A stretch of 64,000 nucleotides of DNA. It comes from Tetrahymena elliotti 4EA (lineage: Eukaryota; Ciliophora; Oligohymenophorea; Hymenostomatida; Tetrahymenidae). The stretch lies in the NCBI GenBank assembly GCA_000231825.2, contig JH720378.1, forward strand, positions 56,848 to 120,847, in the 5' to 3' direction. The notes below the pieces were generated by a model. It made no database searches. It had not been told where the DNA came from and saw only the letters and a list, made by a program, of their open reading frames with translations. Below are positions 14,510 through 52,176 of the stretch, in pieces (within the stretch, counting starts at the first letter, position 1; each line of letters begins with the position of its first letter). A program made the translations under genes and the position numbers.

Positions 14510-17500
14510 ATGATTTAGAGAGACAATTATTTTATTTAGCATGCTGCTTAGCGAGGAAATAACATTCCTCGCCAAAACCAGTAGATGGGAAATGTAGAAG
14601 AGGATTATTAATATGATTAAGAAGAAGGTGGTTAAAGTAGTTAAAAAATGTAAAATGGTTTTTATGACCTAAACTAGCAAATAGACGAATAATCTCATGA
14701 AGATGATGGAGAATGGCATGATCAAGGAAATACAAATGGTAGCAATTCAGATCTTCCATACGAATAAAAGATCTTAAACAAGAGACTGAATGATGCTGTG
14801 CAAAGCATCAGATAAGATGAAAATTTAGTCTAATCTCTTAATGAGATTAGTTAATGTAAAGAATTTTAATAAATTTCATTGATTTTTATATTGAAATTTG
14901 AAAGGAATTTATTAATTTTTAAATATTTTACTATTGATATCATAAAGTGGTTTTAAAGGCTAAAGAGTTCTTAGATGATGAGAAATACAATTACATGTTC
15001 GAAACAGTTATAAAGGTGTTGAATAAGGATTCAGTAGAGTCTTTGAATGATAACTATTGGGAAAAATGTTCTTAGATATTGAATGTGTGCGATGACTTAA
15101 CATAACCACATAAATATGGATTTTTTGTAGAGATGAGAGCACTTACTCTAAATAATTAGGGCTGCATGTATAAGAGAATGCAAGAATATGAAAAGGCACT
15201 AGGGTGCTTCTAAAAAGCTTTATATTTACAGATATAGCAAGAGTCTAAGCTTTATTTAGGATATACCCATCTAAATTTATCAGCAGTATTTAACTAGATT
15301 GGAGAGTAAGTTTATTAAACAGTATTTTAAATTAGAATATTTACTATAATAATTAAGTCATAAGTAGGCACTAAGCCATGCAAAGAAGTCTGTAATTTAA
15401 TTACACAAAGACTTTCAAGAGTATTAAAAAGAGAATAGAGATATTTAGTTATTAAAATAAATGGAAGGATATACAGAGGTCTGCAACAATTTAGCTCTAG
15501 CATTTTATAATGTTGCAGTGGAAGAAGAGTTTTTCAATAATATTGATATGGCTACATTGAATTATGAAAATGCACTTACCTTTTCAGAAGAAAATTTAGG
15601 CTTAACTCATCACATGACAAACAAATTCAGAGAAACTTTGAACGAATTCTTATTGGTACAAATTTTTGAAAATTAAAAAAGATTAATTTGATTGATATGC
15701 TTTGTATTTTAATTAATTTAAGATCAATATTAAAAGTGAAAAATCCTAACTGGCTAGCTAGCTAACTTACAATCAATCATTCAATAAATCAATTAAACAA
15801 ATAAATCCAAATTTGAAATTTATATTTTTTAATTAAAATAGAAACTGTAACAAAAAGAAGAGGAGGAGTTAAACAGGACTGCAGTAAATGAAAAACCAAC
15901 TATGAGGCCTAAAGGAAATGTTAAAAAAATAGTACTTACTTAGAATAAAGTTCTTAGACCAAGCAGTGCTCCTAAAAAGGGGTAGCAAGCTTTGGATTAA
16001 ATTGCTTAGATAGAAAAGAAGATATCAACTATAAAAGATGCTTATAATTTAAAGGGTTAAGATTTCGAATTCAAAGGTAATTAAGTGAGAATCCGTTCAG
16101 CAAATAGAAGACCAAACTAAATTAATAATTAAAACATAAAAATAGTTTAAAAAAAAGGCAACTCACCCAATGCTGATAGATTAAATTAGCAAAGCTAATT
16201 ATAATAGTAATAAATTTAATAATAAAATCAATTATCATCTCTCTATACACAGCAATCAAACCCATAGTAATTGTACTAAAAATATTTAACTGATGCTAAT
16301 GGAACGAGAGGAGCTATTACAGCTTCTATTCGTTTTCATAGAACTCCAGAATAGTCTTCTAATAAACTCTTTAGAATTGCACAGAGAGGAGCTCCTGTGA
16401 CTGCTAATCATAATAACAGTAGAGTTTACTTAGATTATTCATAAAACTCAGGATAAAATATGTCTTAATCTCATTAGAATCATCCTTTAGTTAGTAATTA
16501 AAGACCTTCAAATTCTAAACTACGTCCAACATCAGCTAATCCTAGATAATTCAAAAAAGAAATGTAAAATGATTATTAATAACATAATATTAGTTACACT
16601 CAAGGTATCAATTTTGATAACAGCTATGTTAACACTAGCTATCAACACAATCAATCTTTAAATTCAGGAGATTATCAATAGAGTTAAAAATTCCCTTATC
16701 AATATCCTGTATTGAAGAGAAATAACAATCATGAAAATAACTATGATCAAAATGCTATGAATGTTTCAAGATAGAATTAAAATTATGCATAAAACTCTTT
16801 CAATCATGGATCATCTTATCATAATAACTCTAATGGGAGAATCAACATCAATAATGCTTAAAATAGTTCACAATACAGCTAACTTAATGGTACTGGCTTA
16901 AGTGTAAATTAAAGCACAGGATATTCTACAAGAGGTTTTAACTAATCATAATTATAAAAAAATTCAAACAAGGTATATTTAAAGCAATAGTCACCTACCA
17001 AAAGCAAAAGAGAAGTTACTTTTTCTGAAGAAGATGAACCAGAATAAGCTCAATATAACAATTAAAAATATTAGCAGCCTACTTCATACAATAATTACTT
17101 CAACTAAAGCAATTAGTAAGATAGTTATCATGAATAAAATTAAAATTATCATAATCAATATCAAATTGATTAAAGTAATCATAGCAATTATCAAGTTGAA
17201 AATCAACACGGTTACAGAATGCAATAGTAGTAATAGCAATAATAATATGCTAATTAAAATAAATAAGCAAACAAAAAGCATTATGATGATTTTTATCCTG
17301 AAGATATTAATAATGGTGGTACAGAAGAAGTTTATGAAGCTATTCAAGAAGAAGATGAAAATGATATCAATAATCATCGCTCTGTCTCAGTTGCTGGTGT
17401 TTCATAAGTTTAAAATAACGCTGTAGAAAATTATGATTTGGATTGGGAGGAAGACATCTAGGAAAATGATGATGATGGAAATGCTTAAATTTAAGATAAA

Positions 17501-36981: not shown

Positions 36982-38027
36982 CTAATTTTATTAATTATTA
37001 TTGCAAAATTACTTATTTATATTTGTATTCAATTTCTAATACTTTATATTATATTCATTCAAAAATCTCTCTCATTCTCTCTCATTCAGTATTAAATAAT
37101 CAAACAAACAAACCAAAAAGGTAAAAAAATAATAAACAAATCAAAAAACAATAAGCAAAAGATAACAAAATATAAATTTTTGTTTGAATTTTCTCTTAAA
37201 AAAAATAAAAACTTTAGTTTTAATTATTAAATTGCTTTGGTGGGTGCCTTGTTTTATTTTAATTTATATTTTTTGTATTTTCTGGGTATTTTTATTTATT
37301 TTTGTTTACTTTTTTAATTCTTTTATTATGCTTTTTAATTCAATTTTATTTATTTGAATTTTCTTTTTATATATTTATTCTTTTTTCTTTTTATTTTTTT
37401 GAGCTGCTTCAAGCTGAGATCAAGTCCTTAGTTCATTCATCTGGATGTTGCTTCTTGTGCATTTATTTGCCTAAAAAAAATACTATTTATATATGAAGAG
37501 ACTAAGAGAGAATTTTCAGATTTTTAAATCTTGAGGGAAAAAACGAATGTTTTGAAATATCCTAGGATTATTTATCTTTTATTCGATAAAATATTTTTTT
37601 ATTTTAAGAAATAGAAAAGGCTTATCGAAAGTAGATATGATTTTGCTTTAAAGCAAGGAAAGGAATACATTTTATTATTCTACTTTATAGCCAAGATTCG
37701 AATTTGCGGTTTTGCAGGGGATTTTAAAAACTTTTATTTTGCTTTTCTTTTCTTTCTTAAAAATTAAAATTTTTATTTATTTTTTTCAATTTATTAATTA
37801 ATTTTGCTTTTCCTTTTCACTTTTTATTTAAAGAAATCTTAATTAATCACTAAATAAATAAATATCTCAAAATCTTCTTAACAAGCAACTGAATTGAAAT
37901 TTAATTTGAATTTTGAAAAATCACCCCAAAATATTTTCTTATTTTTAATAAGAAAAGAAAAAGATAATAAATAGTAAAGCAAAGCAAAACAGAATATGTA
38001 TAGAGCGATGATTAAAGTTTAAGGTTA
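36982..38027. other. intergenic, AT-rich
   Basis: No gene seen. A short CTCTCTCATT duplication lies near 37065-37090. The hydrophobic frame at 37302-37496 is T-rich low complexity. Confidence 0.5.
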
Positions 38028-38278
38028 TTAACATTCATTGGAACCGGTGTTAGAAAATTTTTTGCGGCGAGGCCCATCCACATCCGTTAATCTAGCCATA
38101 GCTATACATATTTTAAGCAGCTGCTTTCTACATCTTTTTAAAATACTCCATGCTTGATATGAATAGGAAGTTCGGATTTTGTATGCTTGAGGCTTCTTTG
38201 TTTTAAAGTTTAAGTTTTTAAATTGGCGACCCAAAGTCAAATACCAGACAAGCATAAGTATACCAACTAAAAGAAGTT
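38028..38278. other. GC-elevated block, left edge of the hairpin island
   Basis: About 230 bp with base composition unlike the surrounding DNA (for example TTGCGGCGAGGCCCATCCAC near 38062). A minus-strand frame of 75 codons (38255-38028; contains QAWSILKRCRKQ and ARLTDVDGPRRKK) is open, but plus-strand frames are also open, so coding is not established. It adjoins the hairpin array directly. Either the 5' part of a non-coding transcript or an eroded coding segment; I cannot decide. Confidence 0.4.
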
Positions 38279-38930
38279 AGTACAAATGAAAAACATCCTT
38301 TAGTAAAGAGAATGAAGTATAGATTGAAACTCATTTACTCTAAATAGTAAACTGTACACTTCAAATTCGTTACATCTAATCATATTTTGATTAGATCAGA
38401 TTGAAACTTAAAATATTGTACAGAGTATCGTAAAGGAGTTAAATCCATCAGCTTGTAACTAAAAAAAAGAATGATATTATAAAAAAATTAAAATAATATC
38501 ATGAGTACAAATAAATGATTCGATATTTATTTTCATTAGCTTGAAAATGAATTTAAACAGATTGAAACTTAAAAAATGATTCCTTTAATAAAGGATGAGT
38601 ACATTGTACGTTAAAAAAGATTTGAAACTTAAACAGATTGATATCAAATTAGATATCATGTGTACATTAAAAAGATCATTTTTAATAAAATGAATCTAAA
38701 ATAGTTTGAAACTTAAAACAAAGATTGATATACAAAATGATATCATGAGTACAATCAAAGACAAATAAATCATTTTAAGTTCTTTAAAATGTATTTAAAA
38801 AAGTTTGAAACTAAAAAAAATGATTCCTATTGATTAATCAATATGGATGAGTACAAAAAAAAAATCAGTTTGCAACTTTAAAAGATTAATACTATGTATT
38901 ATGAGTACAAATGAAAGATTGAAGCAAGCT
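38279..38930 (+). ncRNA. candidate structured RNA: array of about eight hairpins with conserved flanks
   Basis: Units follow the pattern G(A/T)TTGAAACTTAAA - spacer - hairpin - ATGAGTACA. Hairpin arms: 38334-38351 (TTTACT/AGTAAA), 38374-38396 (ATCTAATC/GATTAGAT), 38473-38500 (GATATTAT/ATAATATC), 38579-38596 (TCCTTT/AAAGGAT), 38640-38657 (GATATC/GATATC), 38727-38744 (GATAT/ATATC), 38823-38848 (ATTCCTATTGATT/AATCAATATGGAT) and 38887-38901 (TAATAC/GTATTA). GAGTACA or a close variant follows six of the eight stems; TGTACA follows the first. Extra hairpins without that tail lie at about 38676-38693 and 38771-38791. The stems differ in sequence but stay paired, while the flanks are kept: the pattern expected when structure is under selection. 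The strand is chosen only by the orientation of the motifs. No known RNA family recognised. Confidence 0.55.
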
Positions 38931-38989
38931 ATTTGGAGTACTAAGTGAGACAAGTGGAAGTGAGTATGAGTTGAGTTGAGTGAGTGTCT

Positions 38990-39395
38990 ATTTGTGAGTA
39001 ATGCTAGAATGATAAGGTTTGCTCTGGACTTGTGTCTACCCCCGAAGGAGGGATGTTAGGCATAAATGGGGGTCTAAACATAAATAAGTCCTAAACCTGT
39101 TGCACATTAAATCTAATGAGAATTTGGACTGGGTAGAAAAAATAAAGCAAATCGTCTACATGCAGCCAGCCAAGGACAGATTCAAATTAGATTAAGTTTT
39201 TGAAGAAAGCAATACGCAGGCTATCATTAAAAAGCTTTCAAGATTCGCCCAAAAGGATCTCGCCTATTGATACCTGGGTCGGCTACATCTGAAAAAGCTG
39301 ATAGCAAGTTTTTAAACGATGAATAAAAAAGCTTATTCCTTTTCAGGGATAAGCTCGGGCAGATAATCCCATGTAGATGTGCTCTCTTTTTGAAA
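38990..39395 (+). ncRNA. GC-elevated structured block, possible Pol III transcript
   Basis: About 400 bp, clearly GC-richer than its surroundings. A strong hairpin lies at 39331-39354 (GCTTATTCC / GGGATAAGC, 9 bp with one U-G, 6-nt loop). TCTACATG near 39153 is complementary to CATGTAGA near 39371, which could close a domain; ACCCCC near 39038 can pair with GGGGGT near 39068. The block ends in CTCTCTTTTTG (T5 near 39387), a Pol III-style terminator, just before pure A/T sequence. A competing reading is protein: a plus-strand frame ending at TGA 39268-39270 contains NENLDWVEKIKQIVYMQPAK, and another frame continues with ADSKFLNDEQKSLFLFRDK, so a frameshifted gene relic is possible. It matches none of SRP, RNase P/MRP, telomerase, U1-U6 or U3 RNA as I know them. 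Confidence 0.4.
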
Positions 39396-41122
39396 AATAT
39401 TAAGCCTAATGAATTTAAAAATAAAAAAAATTGATTAAAAAAAACATATTAAAAAAATTAAAAAACTGATAAAATATTTTAAAAAAACATATTTAAAAAC
39501 TAATTAAAATAAACTAATTTAAAAAATAAAACATTTATGTAAAAAACTAATAAAAAATAATTAAAAAAAACTATAAAAAAATCACCCTATTAAAAAAAAC
39601 TTAAAACACTACATTAAAAAAACTAAATCAGCAATTGAAATAAACTAAAAATAAATGAATTCAAAAAACAAACAAATAATCAAACAAAATAAAGCAGCAA
39701 CTTTTCATTATGTTTTATTTTTTTAATTTTTGAGCTATTTTCAAGTTTTATTTTCTTTTTATTTTTATTTATCTTTTCAAATGTTTTCAAAAATGTAATT
39801 TTAAACCACCTTTAACAAATAAAAATGTTTAAGTAGCATTATTTTTATTGATTTTGTTTTTCAAAAAACTGTTTTGTTTATTTTGAAATAATTTTATGCT
39901 TTTTTTCATGTTTATTAAGTAAAATAAATGGGAAATTAGTTTTAAATATGATATTATTTTTTAATTAAAAAATGCAAATAATATCCAAACAGTGAGTATT
40001 TTTTTATTTCAAGCAGAATTAATTTGAAAAAAAATAGATAAATCAAATTTAATTAGATATGAGTTTTCAATTAGAAATCTGATTTATTTTTCACTTGAAA
40101 TTCAAACAAAAATTCTTGTAGAATAAATTAAAATTTTACTCAATCCATCAACAAGAAATTTACAAAAACAGCCAAATAGAAATTTTTAATTTAATAATAA
40201 TTTCTTATTTTGCATATTATAAATCCTTCCTCAAATTAACCTTGCCATATTTTAAGTTAGAAATATTAATTTTTCATTCTGAGTTTATTTATCAGAAAAA
40301 GAAAAATTTCAATAGATTTTAATAAAAGAATATACAATATAAATAATAAATTGGACACATTTAGATGCCTGAAAACAAAAAATGAGTTAATGTAAATGCT
40401 CAAATTGGTTATTAAATAAAAGAGAAATACTAACTCATTGGAATAGAGACTTTAATTTATTAGCAATTCATTGATAAGTTTTTGTTGATTTAATAGATAT
40501 TTGCTTAACTCTGTTGCTCATTCACTAATTCTTATTTTGTAATCAAAGTATATTGAAGAATAACCAGAATTTTTTTTATTTTATTTTATGCTAAAATTTA
40601 TGCTGAAGAAGTGTGATTTAAATTAAAAAAAATTAGTTCATTAGTTAAATTAAATGCCCAAGATATGTTTATTATGTGAAATATTCTAAGATCCAAAAAT
40701 AATGATTGAAATTTACAGTTTTAATTCTCCTTGGTTTTTCCATGAAAACAATTAAATTATTTTTTAGGAGGAATAAACAACTTAAATTAGTGAGAAAATA
40801 AAATAGTCTTAATCATAGAAAATGAAGTGATTTGATTTGGAATAATCTTAATTAGAAGTTTAAACAGATATAATAGTTTTTGCTTTACTTTTTATTTATT
40901 AGGCGTAGATTATTTATTATAGTTGGACATACTAATTAATTAGTTCTAATGTATTTTGGAGGTTTTTTGTATAGTTTATTTTTATTCCACAAATGTTATT
41001 TAGAATAAAATAAAGCACACAAGTTATTTTGATTATACTTTTAAAACTTATTTTATAAATAATTATAAAGTCTTTATCAAAATAAATAAATTAATCAGAG
41101 TAGTGCCTTTACAAGCAATCAA
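39396..41122. other. intergenic, A-rich
   Basis: The first 250 bp are dominated by AAAAA/TTAAAAAA runs. No gene seen. Confidence 0.55.
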
Positions 41123-44136: not shown

Positions 44137-46997
44137 ATGATTATCAGGAATACTAATTTGCTTGTAGAGAATTTATATTATTTGCTTTGGCTTAAGGATT
44201 CTGGGTTGAAAGATGCCAGCTTTAATGTAAAAATTCCAGATACTATTATTGTCTAGTCTGGAAAAATTATGAATTGGTTTTTCACTTCAAAAAATGGTGA
44301 AGGCATTCTCATGAAAAAGGATTTTAACCTGAAAAATACAAAAATATTTGAGGCATTCACAAAGAATGAATCAAAAAGTGGAATAGTAGCTATGTTTATA
44401 GAAAATGTAAGGAATGATGACAGTTAGGAAGATGAAAATACTAAAAAAAACTATAACTCTAAGGCTAATAGTAGTCATAATGATGAAAATATAAAATTTG
44501 ATATTCCTAAAAATGAAGGATAAATTGTTATTCGATATTTGACAAAAGAGAAATTAAAAGAATTTTTATTCACTGATTTTACAGAAAAAAAATCAGGCAT
44601 TTTATAGAAATTTATTGATCCATATGGTGATAGTTAAGCAGCTATTCAAGCAATATGGTCACCTTAGCTTTGTGTTTTTTCTAAAAGAGTAAATTATCGT
44701 CATTTATATGATAAAAGATATGATCCTTATGAAAGATTACCTACTTTTGATGGAGCTGAGATGTATTCGCGTACAGTTCCTTTGAGAGGTAAAGTTATTT
44801 CATAAGAAATGAGAAAATTCTGTGAGAATATTGTCTAAAGAATAGCACATGTATCATTTTAAAAGATTATGATACAAAGAATGGTTGTTTATTTCAAGCC
44901 TGATAAGAATAACAATCTTTATTTTCTTTACTGTAGCAGCATGAGATTGCATGGTGAGAAGATTGATCCTGATATACTTGAGCAAAATTAGTACAAAATA
45001 AAAAACACTCCTTTAATTTTAGATACTAATTACTAAAGACCTGAAGAGATTAAACTGATTCAAACAACAAATACAATGAGACCTATTTCACTTGAAAATA
45101 ATATTTAATGCTTCTATTGCTAATAGAAAGTTTAGAAAAAAGATTTAGTTGCAGTTACATATGAGTTTATTATCAATAATTTTGAAGAAAATCCAAATGC
45201 TAAATATTCCAAAGTGAGTTCAATAGCTGTATTAGAAGTTCCTAAAGAACAAAATTTTATTTTAAACACAGAAGAATCTCATTATGTAAAAGACAAAACA
45301 AGTGAAATTCCAGAACTGATCACAAAATTGTATCCAAAATTAACAGTTGAAAATTATCATAAACTCAGATAAAATAAAAAGTTTTTGAGTTAGAAAGTAA
45401 ATTTTTGATTAATATTTTTATAAGATTTATTAATATTATTAAAATATAATAGATAAGATTGTGCTAATATTGTTATTTGGATTTCTCTCGTTATGTCAAA
45501 ATGAGTGGAGCACCTTTAAAAGGGGAAGAAGATTTCAAATTTATGAAAAAAGGTCTAGCTAAAAAAGGATCTTTGTTTACAAGAGAAATGAAAGCAATTG
45601 TAGCAGCTAAAAATGTTGAAATGGCTGAATAAAAAGGAGCTGAATTTGTCAAATATTAGAATAAAGAAGTTTATTAAAGGATGCTTGATTAATTGAATGA
45701 AGAAATGGAGGTAATTTCAAGAGAGAGAAGGAGAAAATAAGAGCCAAATTAAAGAATTTAATAATAAGAAGATAATCTAGAGGAAATTGATGATGAAGAG
45801 GAAGAAGAAGAAGAAGAATAGGAAAAAGAGGAAAGAAATAAAAAATAGAATCATCCTGCAAAGTTTAAAATTTCCAAAAGTTAGGCATTGATAAAACCTG
45901 TTCTTTCTAGACCATAAAGCTGCACAAATTTTAATCAAGAACTGAAATTAAAAGAAATTCAAAAGCAAATATAATTATTTGATAAGAAAGTAGGTAGTTA
46001 ACGAAGAATAAATAACTTAAAAAACAAACCTTAAGATTTAGATTAAAAGAATTAGATGATTCCTTAAAGATAAAAAAGTAAAGATTATCTTGATAGAGAT
46101 TATCTAGAAAGGAATGAATATGATGAAGAAACGCAAAATGAGATACTTGAAGATAATCGTTCAAACACTGATAAAAACAAATATATAAATCCTGAATCTA
46201 TTTAGTAATAAGCTTAATTAGAATTCTAATATAAATTGAATGCTCAGTTCATAAAAACTAAGAAGTCTTAATTAAGCATTAATTCTTAAGCTAATCTATC
46301 AAAGAATTATCATAGACAAGTTTTCCAAAGACCCTAATCAACTACATTTAGCTCTTCACATTAGATAATCAATTTAAACAGTACTAAAGATACACATCCT
46401 TAAAGTGGAAACATAAATTAAAAGTTAGCTAACGAAAACGATATTTAAAATTAGAATCCTAACTAAAGAAGTTAAGGTTTCTTCCATTTAAACAAGCCAT
46501 ATAGGATATAAACAGCTACAATAAGATAAAATAAATAATCAAACCCAAATATTGGAGCTTATGGGTCTGCATAAACTATTAAGTCTCCTTAAAGCACAAA
46601 GTATTCATCATAATCAGCTATTCAAAGTAGTAAGTAATCTTAACCTTTTGTTGCTGGCTAACAGTAGTAATTATTTTAGTTTTCAAATCTTAAGAGACCA
46701 TAAAGTCATTAAATTTCATCTAATCAACCCTCAAAACCACTATCTCCATAATAAGAATAAGTAAGAATTAAGACTGATGGCTCTTAAAGAAATATTTACC
46801 AAGAAAAAAATAATTATAGAGGGTTTGCAGATGAGCAAGGAAATGAAATCATACTAGAATAAAATTTTGATGACAATGAAAATTAAAATCAATAAGAAGA
46901 AATTTTAGAACAATAAGGAGAGGATTATTTCAATTATGAAAATTTAGACTTCAATTTTGAAGAAGTTAATGAAGACTATGTCAACCAAAGAGATTGA
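44137..46997 (+). CDS. protein with conserved N-terminal domain, two CxxC pairs and Q-rich tail, 934 aa
   Basis: Exons 44137-45396 and 45453-46997, phase 0; TGA at 46995-46997. Residues 1-320 look like a folded domain not rich in Q: NLLVENLYYLLWLKDSGLKD, QAAIQAIWSPQLCVFSKRVN, ENIVQRIAHVSFQKIMIQRM and VVYFKPDKNNNLYFLYCSSM. A CFYC pair at ~residue 326 and a CQYC pair at ~424, directly after the intron junction, could form one split zinc site. After that come a basic segment (SGAPLKGEEDFKFMKKGLAK), helical E/R-rich and poly-E stretches, and a long Q/N/S-rich disordered tail ending in acidic EEVNEDYVNQRD. The N-terminal domain has the look of a conserved eukaryotic protein, possibly ciliary, but I cannot name it. 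Confidence 0.8.
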
Positions 46998-47806: not shown

Positions 47807-47811
47807 GTTTA

Positions 47812-47883
47812 GCCCGCCGTGGGGCTCGAACCCACGACCACAAGATTAAGAGTCTTGCGCTCTACCGACTGAGCTAGGCGGGC
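47812..47883 (-). tRNA. trnK-CUU: tRNA-Lys (anticodon CUU)
   Basis: Complete 72-nt cloverleaf on the minus strand with no intron: acceptor GCCCGCC/GGCGGGC, D arm GCTC-AGTCGGTA-GAGC, anticodon arm CAAGA-CTCTTAA-TCTTG with anticodon CTT, and T arm GTGGG-TTCGAGC-CCCAC. The A box (TAGCTCAGTCGG) and B box (GGTTCGAGCC) are intact. CCA is not encoded, as usual for eukaryotes. It decodes AAG. Confidence 0.98.
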
Positions 47884-51066: not shown

Positions 51067-52176
51067 ACTTAAGAACTGAAAGTCAGCCACAATTAAATTT
51101 ATTATAGATAATAATTTATTTCATTTAAATAATTTAAATTTAATATTTATCTTATGAATTTATTTGATTTTATTGGACTAAAAATGTTTTTTTTATTAAT
51201 TTATTTATTATCTTTAAATTAAAAATATTAAAATTAAAATATGATTTTTGAAACATTTTATTCAGGTTAACAAAAATCTAAAATTAAATTAGGTAAAATT
51301 ATTATTTTTTAAATTATTTTAAATACTTTTGTACAAAATTTATTTTCAAGATTAAAATAAATAAAAATATTGATATCTATTTAAAGATCAATTTAAAAAT
51401 ATTTCATAAATAAAGCTCTTTGATAAATTAATATTTATCTTATCAATATAATTGTTAAAAGTCAAAAGTAGTGTAAAGATTAATCTGAATCTAATAAAAA
51501 TAATTATGAATAGTTAATAGAAATGCAAAGGTTAATATTTATTAAATTAAATATAATTATAAACAATTTTTAGGTGTGTTAAGATTAATTTTTATTTTAA
51601 AATATTCACTTAAATTTTGTTAGAAAGTAAGATATCCCATAAATATTCACAAAACATAAATAAAAATAAAATATAATCTACATATCATATATCTATCATA
51701 TATTTTTAATTAGATGAGGCTTTATACCATTTTTTTAATTATGAGTAAATCACTTTTTTTAAGTTTAAAAATGAGGAGAATTTTACTTTTAAATTTTAAA
51801 AATAAAAAGGGATTAACTAATTAAGAAATGTTTAAAAGCTCCTTAAAATCATTCAGATATAAAATGATTTTAATTTTTTATTTCAATATAAATTTTGGAT
51901 ATCAATAATAAATAATGGAGATAAATTTGTTTCCATTATTTATTTTAAATGTTAATCTTTCTAAATTGTAACAAAAATTTTAATTTAGCTGTAATGACTT
52001 TTTAATTTCTCATCAAAGATAAATTTTAAGAATAATTTCAAAATCTTATTTTTTTTAAAATAGATCATAAATCCATTTTTTGAGGAATTATTATTAAGTT
52101 TAGTGGATGGAGGTAAGAAAAATTAGTGGAAAAAAATAAGCACAATAAGTTTAATTGAAAAAAGAAAAGAAAAAAA
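51067..52176. other. 5' flank of the START array, with segments repeated later
   Basis: No gene. The stretch at about 51655-51800 (ACATATCAT, then AGATGAGGCTTTATACC) recurs diverged at about 61790-61920, and 51955-52075 recurs near 56980-57115 and 62065-62205, so this flank belongs to the duplicating units of the array. Confidence 0.6.

What the first reader, a model, noticed from the sequence alone, without database searches (positions are those of the whole stretch)
38279..38930. Array of about eight hairpins with conserved flanks but different stems: candidate new structured RNA
Each unit has G(A/T)TTGAAACTTAAA, a short spacer, a hairpin, and in most units ATGAGTACA. Stem sequences differ from unit to unit (GATATTAT/ATAATATC, TCCTTT/AAAGGA, GATATC/GATATC, a 13-bp-arm AT stem at 38823-38848, TAATAC/GTATTA) yet pairing is kept. 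Conserved linkers with covarying stems are what selection on RNA structure looks like, and simple A/T drift would not keep the flanks. I know no eukaryotic RNA with this design. It could be a multi-hairpin lncRNA, a small-RNA precursor, or a tandem array of tiny RNAs.
Basis: partly seen in the sequence, partly recalled or inferred. Interest (0 to 1): 0.88.

Follow-up and report, generated by a model that had tools for sequence, protein, structure and literature searches.

The report
Hairpin-and-linker array, probable Tetrahymena ncRNA
A stretch of ciliate DNA between two genes carries eight copies of a small module in which two short conserved sequences are held a nearly constant distance apart by hairpins of changing sequence, which looks like a non-coding RNA that binds several copies of a protein, although nobody has yet shown that it is transcribed.

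Summary
At 38322-38909 (+) lie eight copies of motif A (consensus GWTTGAAACTWAAA), each followed by motif B (GTACA in 8 of 8, ATGAGTACA in 5 of 8). A hairpin sits between A and B in 7 of 8 units; four more lie 2-7 nt upstream of an A. Stems differ but pair: in the four units alignable by stem, 24 of 24 cells pair and 4 of 6 pairs changed on both sides. Stems abut B (0 of 5000 shuffles). Removing the hairpin cuts the A-B distance in U3-U8 from 27-44 to 12-15 nt. A and B are conserved far above the bases next to them. No second copy was found in the 90-Mb genome, no Rfam match, and no clear coding signal. Best reading: a lncRNA with repeated two-part protein sites, each pinched together by a hairpin whose sequence does not matter. 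Transcription, strand and conservation in sister species could not be tested. The hairpins pair equally well on both strands with almost no G-U, so a DNA element or palindromes kept by template switching remain possible. A small ORF 3' of the array has a sub-threshold Pfam match.

The parts
37990..39390 (+). candidate non-coding transcription unit (5' part, hairpin array, GC-rich 3' part)
   Evidence: GC .33/.22/.39 in the three parts against .20 upstream and .18 downstream; array and 3' part purine-rich on +; no clear coding signal in six frames; ends are approximate and inferred from composition only
38322..38909 (+). array of eight A-hairpin-B units
38322..38358 (+). unit U1: GATTGAAACT, 6-bp hairpin 38334-38351, GTACA (divergent)
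   Evidence: R1 9.9 bits, E 0.18; hairpin
38399..38423 (+). unit U2: A motif joined to GTACA without a hairpin
   Evidence: R1 20.5 bits
38451..38509 (+). unit U3: degenerate A (GCTTGTAACT), 10-bp hairpin 38471-38502, ATGAGTACA
   Evidence: R1 36.8 bits
38560..38603 (+). unit U4: A, hairpin TCCTTT/AAAGGA 38581-38595, ATGAGTACA
   Evidence: R1 63.9 bits (used to build R1)
38620..38666 (+). unit U5: A, hairpin TGATATC/GATATCA 38639-38658, ATGTGTACA
   Evidence: R1 55.4 bits (used to build R1)
38704..38753 (+). unit U6: A, hairpin TGATAT/ATATCA 38726-38745, ATGAGTACA
   Evidence: R1 60.8 bits (used to build R1)
38803..38855 (+). unit U7: A, 9-bp bulged hairpin 38825-38847, ATGAGTACA
   Evidence: R1 42.1 bits
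38868..38909 (+). unit U8: A (GTTTGCAACT), hairpin TAATAC/GTATTA 38887-38901, ATGAGTACA
   Evidence: R1 60.2 bits (used to build R1)
38374..38396 (+). upstream hairpin a1, 9 bp, 2 nt before A of U2
38525..38552 (+). upstream hairpin a2, 11 bp (with the only G-U pair), 7 nt before A of U4
38673..38697 (+). upstream hairpin a3, 10 bp with a bulge, 6 nt before A of U6
38766..38797 (+). upstream hairpin a4, 13 bp with a bulge, 5 nt before A of U7
38440..38945 (+). likely ~245-nt higher-order repeat in two copies (about 38440-38700 and 38690-38945)
   Evidence: repeat families at spacing 243-244 (D1, D3, D8, D11); gapped alignment 186 of 220 aligned bases identical, but the same method gives 146 of 186 for a pair not in register, so the alignment alone is weak

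Best explanation
A long non-coding RNA from a locus found once in this genome, most likely read from the + strand, whose middle part is a multivalent protein-binding array. Each unit presents two short single-stranded sequences, A (UUGAAACUUAAA) and B (UGAGUACA). The hairpin between them acts as a clip of no fixed sequence: it loops out the spare length and holds A and B 12-15 nt apart, so that one RNA-binding protein, or a dimer, reads both. Six to eight such sites in a row would sequester (sponge) or assemble (scaffold) that protein. Shown here: motifs, hairpins, paired changes, nearly constant effective spacing in U3-U8, conservation of A and B far above their surroundings, no second copy found. 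Inferred: transcription, strand, lack of coding function, existence and identity of the protein, and sponge or scaffold action.
For: 24 of 24 stem cells paired, 4 of 6 pairs changed on both sides, covariation 0.778 against 0.234 in shuffles (0/500) and at most 0.222 in slid versions (4 of 8 units). Stems abut B: summed length 43 against 21.4, 0 of 5000 (7 units). A-B distance in U3-U8: SD 6.2 nt linear, 1.5 nt with the hairpin removed. Pairwise identity in 8 units: A 86%, GTACA 100%, 15 nt upstream 43%, 15 nt downstream 35%; alignment z 24 for A and 20 for B against 2.5 upstream and 0.3 downstream. In the four stem-aligned units A, B and linker are 84-94% identical, stems 61%, loops 39%. Array z -5.5, flanking parts 0.1 and -0.5. 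No clear coding signal, no protein relatives of two overlapping ORFs at E up to 10, no Rfam family, no copy elsewhere found.
Against: No transcript data and no sister-species DNA were available. Hairpins pair equally well on the minus strand (z -5.95) and hold 91 Watson-Crick pairs to 1 G-U (stretches chosen around good stems), whereas an RNA under selection is usually expected to show more G-U (recalled). Of 36 stem-pair comparisons, 14 changed on both sides and 0 on one side, which also fits template-switch mutation. U2 has no hairpin and U1 a hairpin-removed distance of only 4 nt. Units are related by duplication and so not independent. The 15 nt upstream of A are somewhat alike (2 of 500 shuffles as good). 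The 5' and 3' parts fold no better than shuffles. The + ORF 39013-39270 in the 3' part has a DUF2247 match of 21.5 bits (E 2e-4 for one protein; curated cut-off 25), though only E 0.08 over the genome and with codon usage at the low edge of real genes (2% of 91 coding windows lower, 23% of 902 open frames higher).
Confidence: 0.43

Rival explanations
1. DNA-level element: a cis-regulatory, origin or attachment region in which proteins bind motifs A and B as double-stranded DNA, the palindromes acting as cruciforms, secondary sites or spacers.
For: Both strands fold alike and G-U pairs are nearly absent; it lies in a gap without clear coding signal.
Against: The linear A-B distance varies from 9 to 44 nt over the 8 units, and in U3-U8 becomes nearly constant only if the hairpin is extruded; stems lack a shared sequence; the flanking parts have raised GC, as a transcript might.
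Confidence: 0.2
2. Neutral array: a short segment duplicated in tandem, whose palindromes are mutational hot spots kept perfect by template switching during replication, without any selected function.
For: Likely ~245-nt higher-order duplication; 14 two-sided and 0 one-sided stem changes; template switching is reported to create stems and multibase compensatory changes (PMC8794818: outline with abstract and start of introduction seen).
Against: A and GTACA stay conserved in all 8 units, U1 and U2 included, while the bases just outside are far less alike; duplication alone would not do that. Hairpins of 8 or more bp are denser here than in any of 598 other windows.
Confidence: 0.12
3. Part of a protein-coding mRNA (untranslated region, or leader of a small ORF such as 39013-39270), with the array as a post-transcriptional control element.
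For: The small + ORF 39013-39270 directly 3' of the array has a sub-threshold DUF2247 match (21.5 bits, cut-off 25); such control elements are often hairpins in UTRs (recalled).
Against: That match is E 0.08 over the genome and one of two sub-threshold places; codon usage is not clearly coding; NCBIfam gives nothing near a cut-off. The nearest strong coding signal starts near 41.1 kb, over 2 kb away, and the upstream ORFs end by about 36.98 kb with weak codon scores.
Confidence: 0.12
4. Remnant of a germline-limited or mobile element kept in the somatic genome.
For: Repeats and palindromes are common in such elements (recalled).
Against: Only the locus itself is found for the whole and for each of three parts; no Pfam match above its cut-off in the ORFs scanned.
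Confidence: 0.08
5. Precursor of small RNAs cut from the hairpins.
For: Several hairpins in a row.
Against: Stems are 5-13 bp, too short for Dicer-type processing of a 23-24-nt duplex (recalled); stem sequences are not conserved.
Confidence: 0.03

Closest known systems
meiRNA of fission yeast, decoy of the YTH protein Mmi1 through repeated UNAAAC (DSR) motifs
   Same: A lncRNA with many copies of a short motif that lures one RNA-binding protein; here T[TCG]AAAC occurs 8 times on the + strand against about 1 expected, 6 of them as TGAAAC inside motif A; this genome holds YTH domains at about five places.
   Different: Here the constant part is far longer (A plus B) and comes with a hairpin clip; no Mmi1 relative or binding was shown; meiRNA facts from passages of PMC6789587.
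roX RNAs of Drosophila (stem-loops with roX boxes)
   Same: Several stem-loops with conserved short sequences act on proteins.
   Different: roX boxes are uridine-rich and linked to the MLE helicase (passages of PMC6451107; the rest recalled); A and B are different sequences and lie outside the stems.
CsrB/RsmZ-type bacterial sponge RNAs (recalled)
   Same: Many hairpins of differing stem sequence carrying one constant protein-binding motif.
   Different: There the constant motif GGA is in the hairpin loop; here loops are free and the constant parts lie on both sides of the hairpin.
Xist A-repeat (recalled)
   Same: About eight repeated units in a lncRNA.
   Different: There the repeat core is conserved and the linkers vary; here the linkers are conserved and the stems vary.

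Membership tests
meiRNA/DSR-type YTH decoy RNA | enrichment of U(U/C/G)AAAC on the transcribed strand | tested here: met
   8 on +, 2 on -; shuffled mean 1.37, max 6, 0 of 1000 reach 8; that + is the transcribed strand is inferred
meiRNA/DSR-type YTH decoy RNA | a YTH protein of Mmi1 type that binds it | tested here: inconclusive
   six YTH matches above cut-off at about five places; type and binding unknown
meiRNA/DSR-type YTH decoy RNA | transcribed in meiosis, nuclear dot | not testable with these tools
   no expression data
any of the 4227 Rfam families | covariance-model match | tested here: not met
   only gathering match in the window is a tRNA elsewhere; in 37700-39700 at E up to 5 there is one sub-threshold A/T-rich match at 37926-37973, outside the array
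roX RNA | roX boxes in stem-loops bound by MLE/MSL | not tested
   resemblance in layout only; no Rfam match
microRNA/siRNA hairpin precursor | long stem able to give a 20-24-nt duplex | tested here: not met
   longest predicted hairpin of the 11 folded is 13 bp
multivalent repeat lncRNA (sponge or scaffold) | several copies of one module in one unit without coding function | tested here: inconclusive
   8 units; no clear coding signal but a sub-threshold Pfam match in a small ORF beside the array
multivalent repeat lncRNA (sponge or scaffold) | transcribed and bound by a protein | not testable with these tools
   no RNA or protein data

The most novel reading that the evidence does not exclude
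A new design of eukaryotic structured RNA: repeated two-part single-stranded recognition sites whose halves are brought to a fixed distance by 'blank' hairpins under selection for pairing only, used as a multivalent decoy or scaffold in Tetrahymena.
Probability: 0.3. Interest if true: 0.75.

Novelty: new variant of a known kind. Interest (0 to 1): 0.55.

Why it matters
Few long non-coding RNAs show clear structural constraint. Here one locus carries its own comparative experiment: related units in which linkers stay alike, stems change in matched pairs and the effective spacing stays nearly constant. That gives a clear, testable prediction of what is read (A and B) and what is only geometry (the hairpin). 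It would also be a good test case for whether compensatory stem changes come from selection or from template-switch mutation.

Tried and rejected
Known RNA family: Rfam at gathering and at E up to 5, nothing in the array. Protein coding: six-frame codon score (one 240-nt window, 38200 in + frame 1, reaches +1.0 with one stop; the downstream gene reaches +24.8), Pfam on ten ORFs near the array and in neighbouring genes and on six ORFs, two of them scanned before, NCBIfam on two, and two protein searches (none at E up to 10). The one match worth telling is DUF2247 in ORF 39013-39270 (E 2e-4, 21.5 bits, cut-off 25); it is E 0.08 in the genome-wide search and the codon usage is ambiguous, so I set it aside but raised the mRNA rival from 0.10 to 0.12 and lowered the best explanation from 0.45 to 0.43 when I rechecked it. 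Other copies: DNA searches found only the locus itself and one 20-nt self-match inside the array. GWTTGAAACTWAAA has 38 sites genome-wide, 4 in the array; the backwards control gives 37. R1 on 30 of the 34 other sites gave at best 31.3 bits at L029, a place chosen for its A motif; I read eight of the nine best hits (seven loci; L026 not read) and none is an array. Alignment of seven units misplaced the stems, so no pair count was made on it; one search uses the four units with 6-7-bp stems (U4, U5, U6, U8). In the model alignment U7 and U1 each show positions marked as not standard pairs. Pol III transcription was set aside because of a T6 run at 38058-38063, a judgement from recalled rules. 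CRISPR-, integron- and H/ACA-like readings were dropped on anatomy alone. Degenerate units at 38265-38284 and 38917-38942 were seen by eye but are not found by R1 at E up to 1. Paper searches: among the rows listed, judged by titles and starts of abstracts, none describes this locus; several searches had far more hits than were listed, and the library lacks most subscription journals.

Full report
What is there. The window lies in contig C89 (286,999 bases) of an 89.95-Mb, 134-contig assembly. A neighbouring gene (44443-46994) is related to a Tetrahymena malaccensis protein, 96% identical over one stretch and 70% over the next, so this is probably a Tetrahymena close to, but not identical with, that species. 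No tool named the species.

The array. Between 38322 and 38909 on the + strand there are eight copies of motif A (consensus GWTTGAAACTWAAA), each followed by motif B. B is ATGAGTACA in 5 of 8 units, ATGTGTACA in one, and only its core GTACA in U1 and U2. A hairpin stands between A and B in 7 of 8 units; four more hairpins (a1-a4) stand 2-7 nt upstream of the A of U2, U4, U6 and U7.

Chance. Ordered A..B pairs (A with up to 2, B with up to 1 mismatch) number 6 in the array and 1 elsewhere on the + strand, 0 on the - strand; 20 whole-window shuffles give 0 or 1 per strand. TGAAAC occurs 6 times in the array against 0.14 expected from the window rate (0.49 in shuffles of the array), and GAGTACA 5 times against 0.05. 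The seven spacers fold at -28.9 kcal/mol in sum against -9.2 +/- 3.3 in 1000 shuffles, none as low; singly, five of seven have 45-156 shuffles as good. Stems end next to B: summed stem length 43 against 21.4, 0 of 5000 shuffles (U7 taken with its unbulged 3 bp, which alone is no better than chance). The array as a whole has z -5.5, the 5' and 3' parts 0.1 and -0.5. Against this, a 150-nt scan ranks the best array window only 5th of 639 and the other array windows are modest; hairpins with arms of 6 or more bp are dense but 7 of 598 windows equal them, 6 of 598 for 7 or more bp, none for 8 or more bp.

Covariation. On the four units that align by stem (U4, U5, U6, U8) all 24 cells are standard pairs, 4 of 6 pairs have changes on both sides, covariation 0.778 against 0.234 in shuffles (0/500); slid versions reach at most 0.222. 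Only four related rows were used and the stem was drawn from these sequences, so this is support, not proof. A covariance model from these four (R1) finds the two strong units not used to build it, U7 at E 1.3e-6 and U3 at 1.7e-5, then U2 at 0.045, and nothing below E 1 elsewhere in the window.

What is constrained. Across all eight units, motif A (10 nt) has 86% mean pairwise identity and GTACA 100% (chosen by eye in U1 and U2), while the 15 nt just upstream have 43% and the 15 nt just downstream 35%. Alignment scores against shuffles are z 24 for A and 20 for B, 2.5 upstream (2 of 500 shuffles as good) and 0.3 downstream. In the stem-aligned four, A is 85%, linker 84%, B 94%, stems 61% and loops 39%. 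The array probably contains a ~245-nt higher-order duplication (repeat families at spacing 243-244; gapped alignment 186 of 220, though an out-of-register pair also gives 146 of 186). Plain duplication would not leave A and B so much better kept than their neighbours. In U3-U8 the linear distance from A to GTACA is 27-44 nt (SD 6.2); with the hairpin taken away it is 12-15 nt (SD 1.5); U2, without a hairpin, has 9, and U1 has 4. Length variation among U3-U8 is thus held almost wholly inside the hairpins. This is the main reason for the clip model.

Surroundings. From about 36.8 to 41.0 kb no 240-nt frame has a coding score comparable with that of the downstream gene. The 5' and 3' parts have raised GC (.33 and .39; the array .22; outside .20 and .18; the two-change-point fit itself picks 38920-39385), and the array and 3' part are purine-rich on the + strand. 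I read 37990-39390 as a transcription unit on the + strand; that is inference. Two ORFs that overlap it have no relatives found among 5.8 billion proteins at E up to 10. Against a purely non-coding reading, the 85-aa + ORF 39013-39270 has a DUF2247 match of 21.5 bits, E 2e-4 for that protein, under the curated cut-off of 25. In the genome-wide search the same place is E 0.08, and its codon usage lies at the low edge of real genes: 2% of 91 coding windows score lower, 23% of 902 open frames score higher. I take it as probably chance, not as excluded.

Uniqueness. Motif A as a pattern has 38 sites genome-wide, 4 of them here; the backwards control has 37. ATCATGAGTACA has 6 sites with 2 here (control 5), GGATGAGTACA 8 with 2 here (control 10). 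A whole-genome search with the covariance model was not possible.

How it would work. A and B are the constant, mostly unpaired parts and so the natural binding sites; the hairpin has no constant sequence and so is geometry. I propose that one protein (or dimer) reads A and B together on an RNA, with the hairpin taking up the slack, and that six to eight sites make the RNA a decoy or scaffold. A YTH decoy like meiRNA is one concrete version: motif A contains UGAAAC, which fits the Mmi1 motif UNAAAC (passages of PMC6789587), and this genome has YTH domains at about five places. Motif A also contains AAACU, which fits the m6A consensus DRACH (recalled). Both are leads, not tests.

What keeps this from being settled. 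The hairpins are equally good on the minus strand and have 91 Watson-Crick to 1 G-U pair on the + strand, and stem differences are two-sided in 14 comparisons and one-sided in none. That is what template switching in DNA replication can produce (PMC8794818: outline with abstract and start of introduction seen), and it does not choose between RNA and DNA hairpins. On rechecking I moved 0.02 of confidence from the best explanation to the mRNA rival because of the sub-threshold Pfam match.

Noticed in passing
39013-39270 (+): 85-aa ORF just 3' of the array with a sub-threshold DUF2247 match (21.5 bits, cut-off 25) and ambiguous codon usage.
   Followed up: partly
38946-39390: GC-rich (0.39) 3' part with possible nested pairing by eye (GGACTT 39026-39031 with AAGTCC 39086-39091; CCCCC with GGGGG between), but it folds no better than shuffles (z -0.5).
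   Followed up: partly
39415-39626: A-rich short tandem repeats begin shortly after the candidate transcript.
   Followed up: no
38265-38284 and 38917-38942: Possible degenerate half-units (small hairpin plus AGTACA; GATTGAAGC...GGAGTACT) at both ends of the array, not found by model R1 at E up to 1.
   Followed up: partly
16301-16450, 1-150, 2401-2550: Strongest local folding signals of the window (z -3.9, -3.65, -3.56).
   Followed up: no
47811-47883 (-): tRNA-Lys (CTT), the only Rfam gathering match in the window.
   Followed up: yes
51427-51560: 52-nt tandem repeat, 2.6 copies.
   Followed up: no
G000:C11, C32, C34, C49, C60: YTH-domain matches at about five places in this ciliate genome.
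   Followed up: partly
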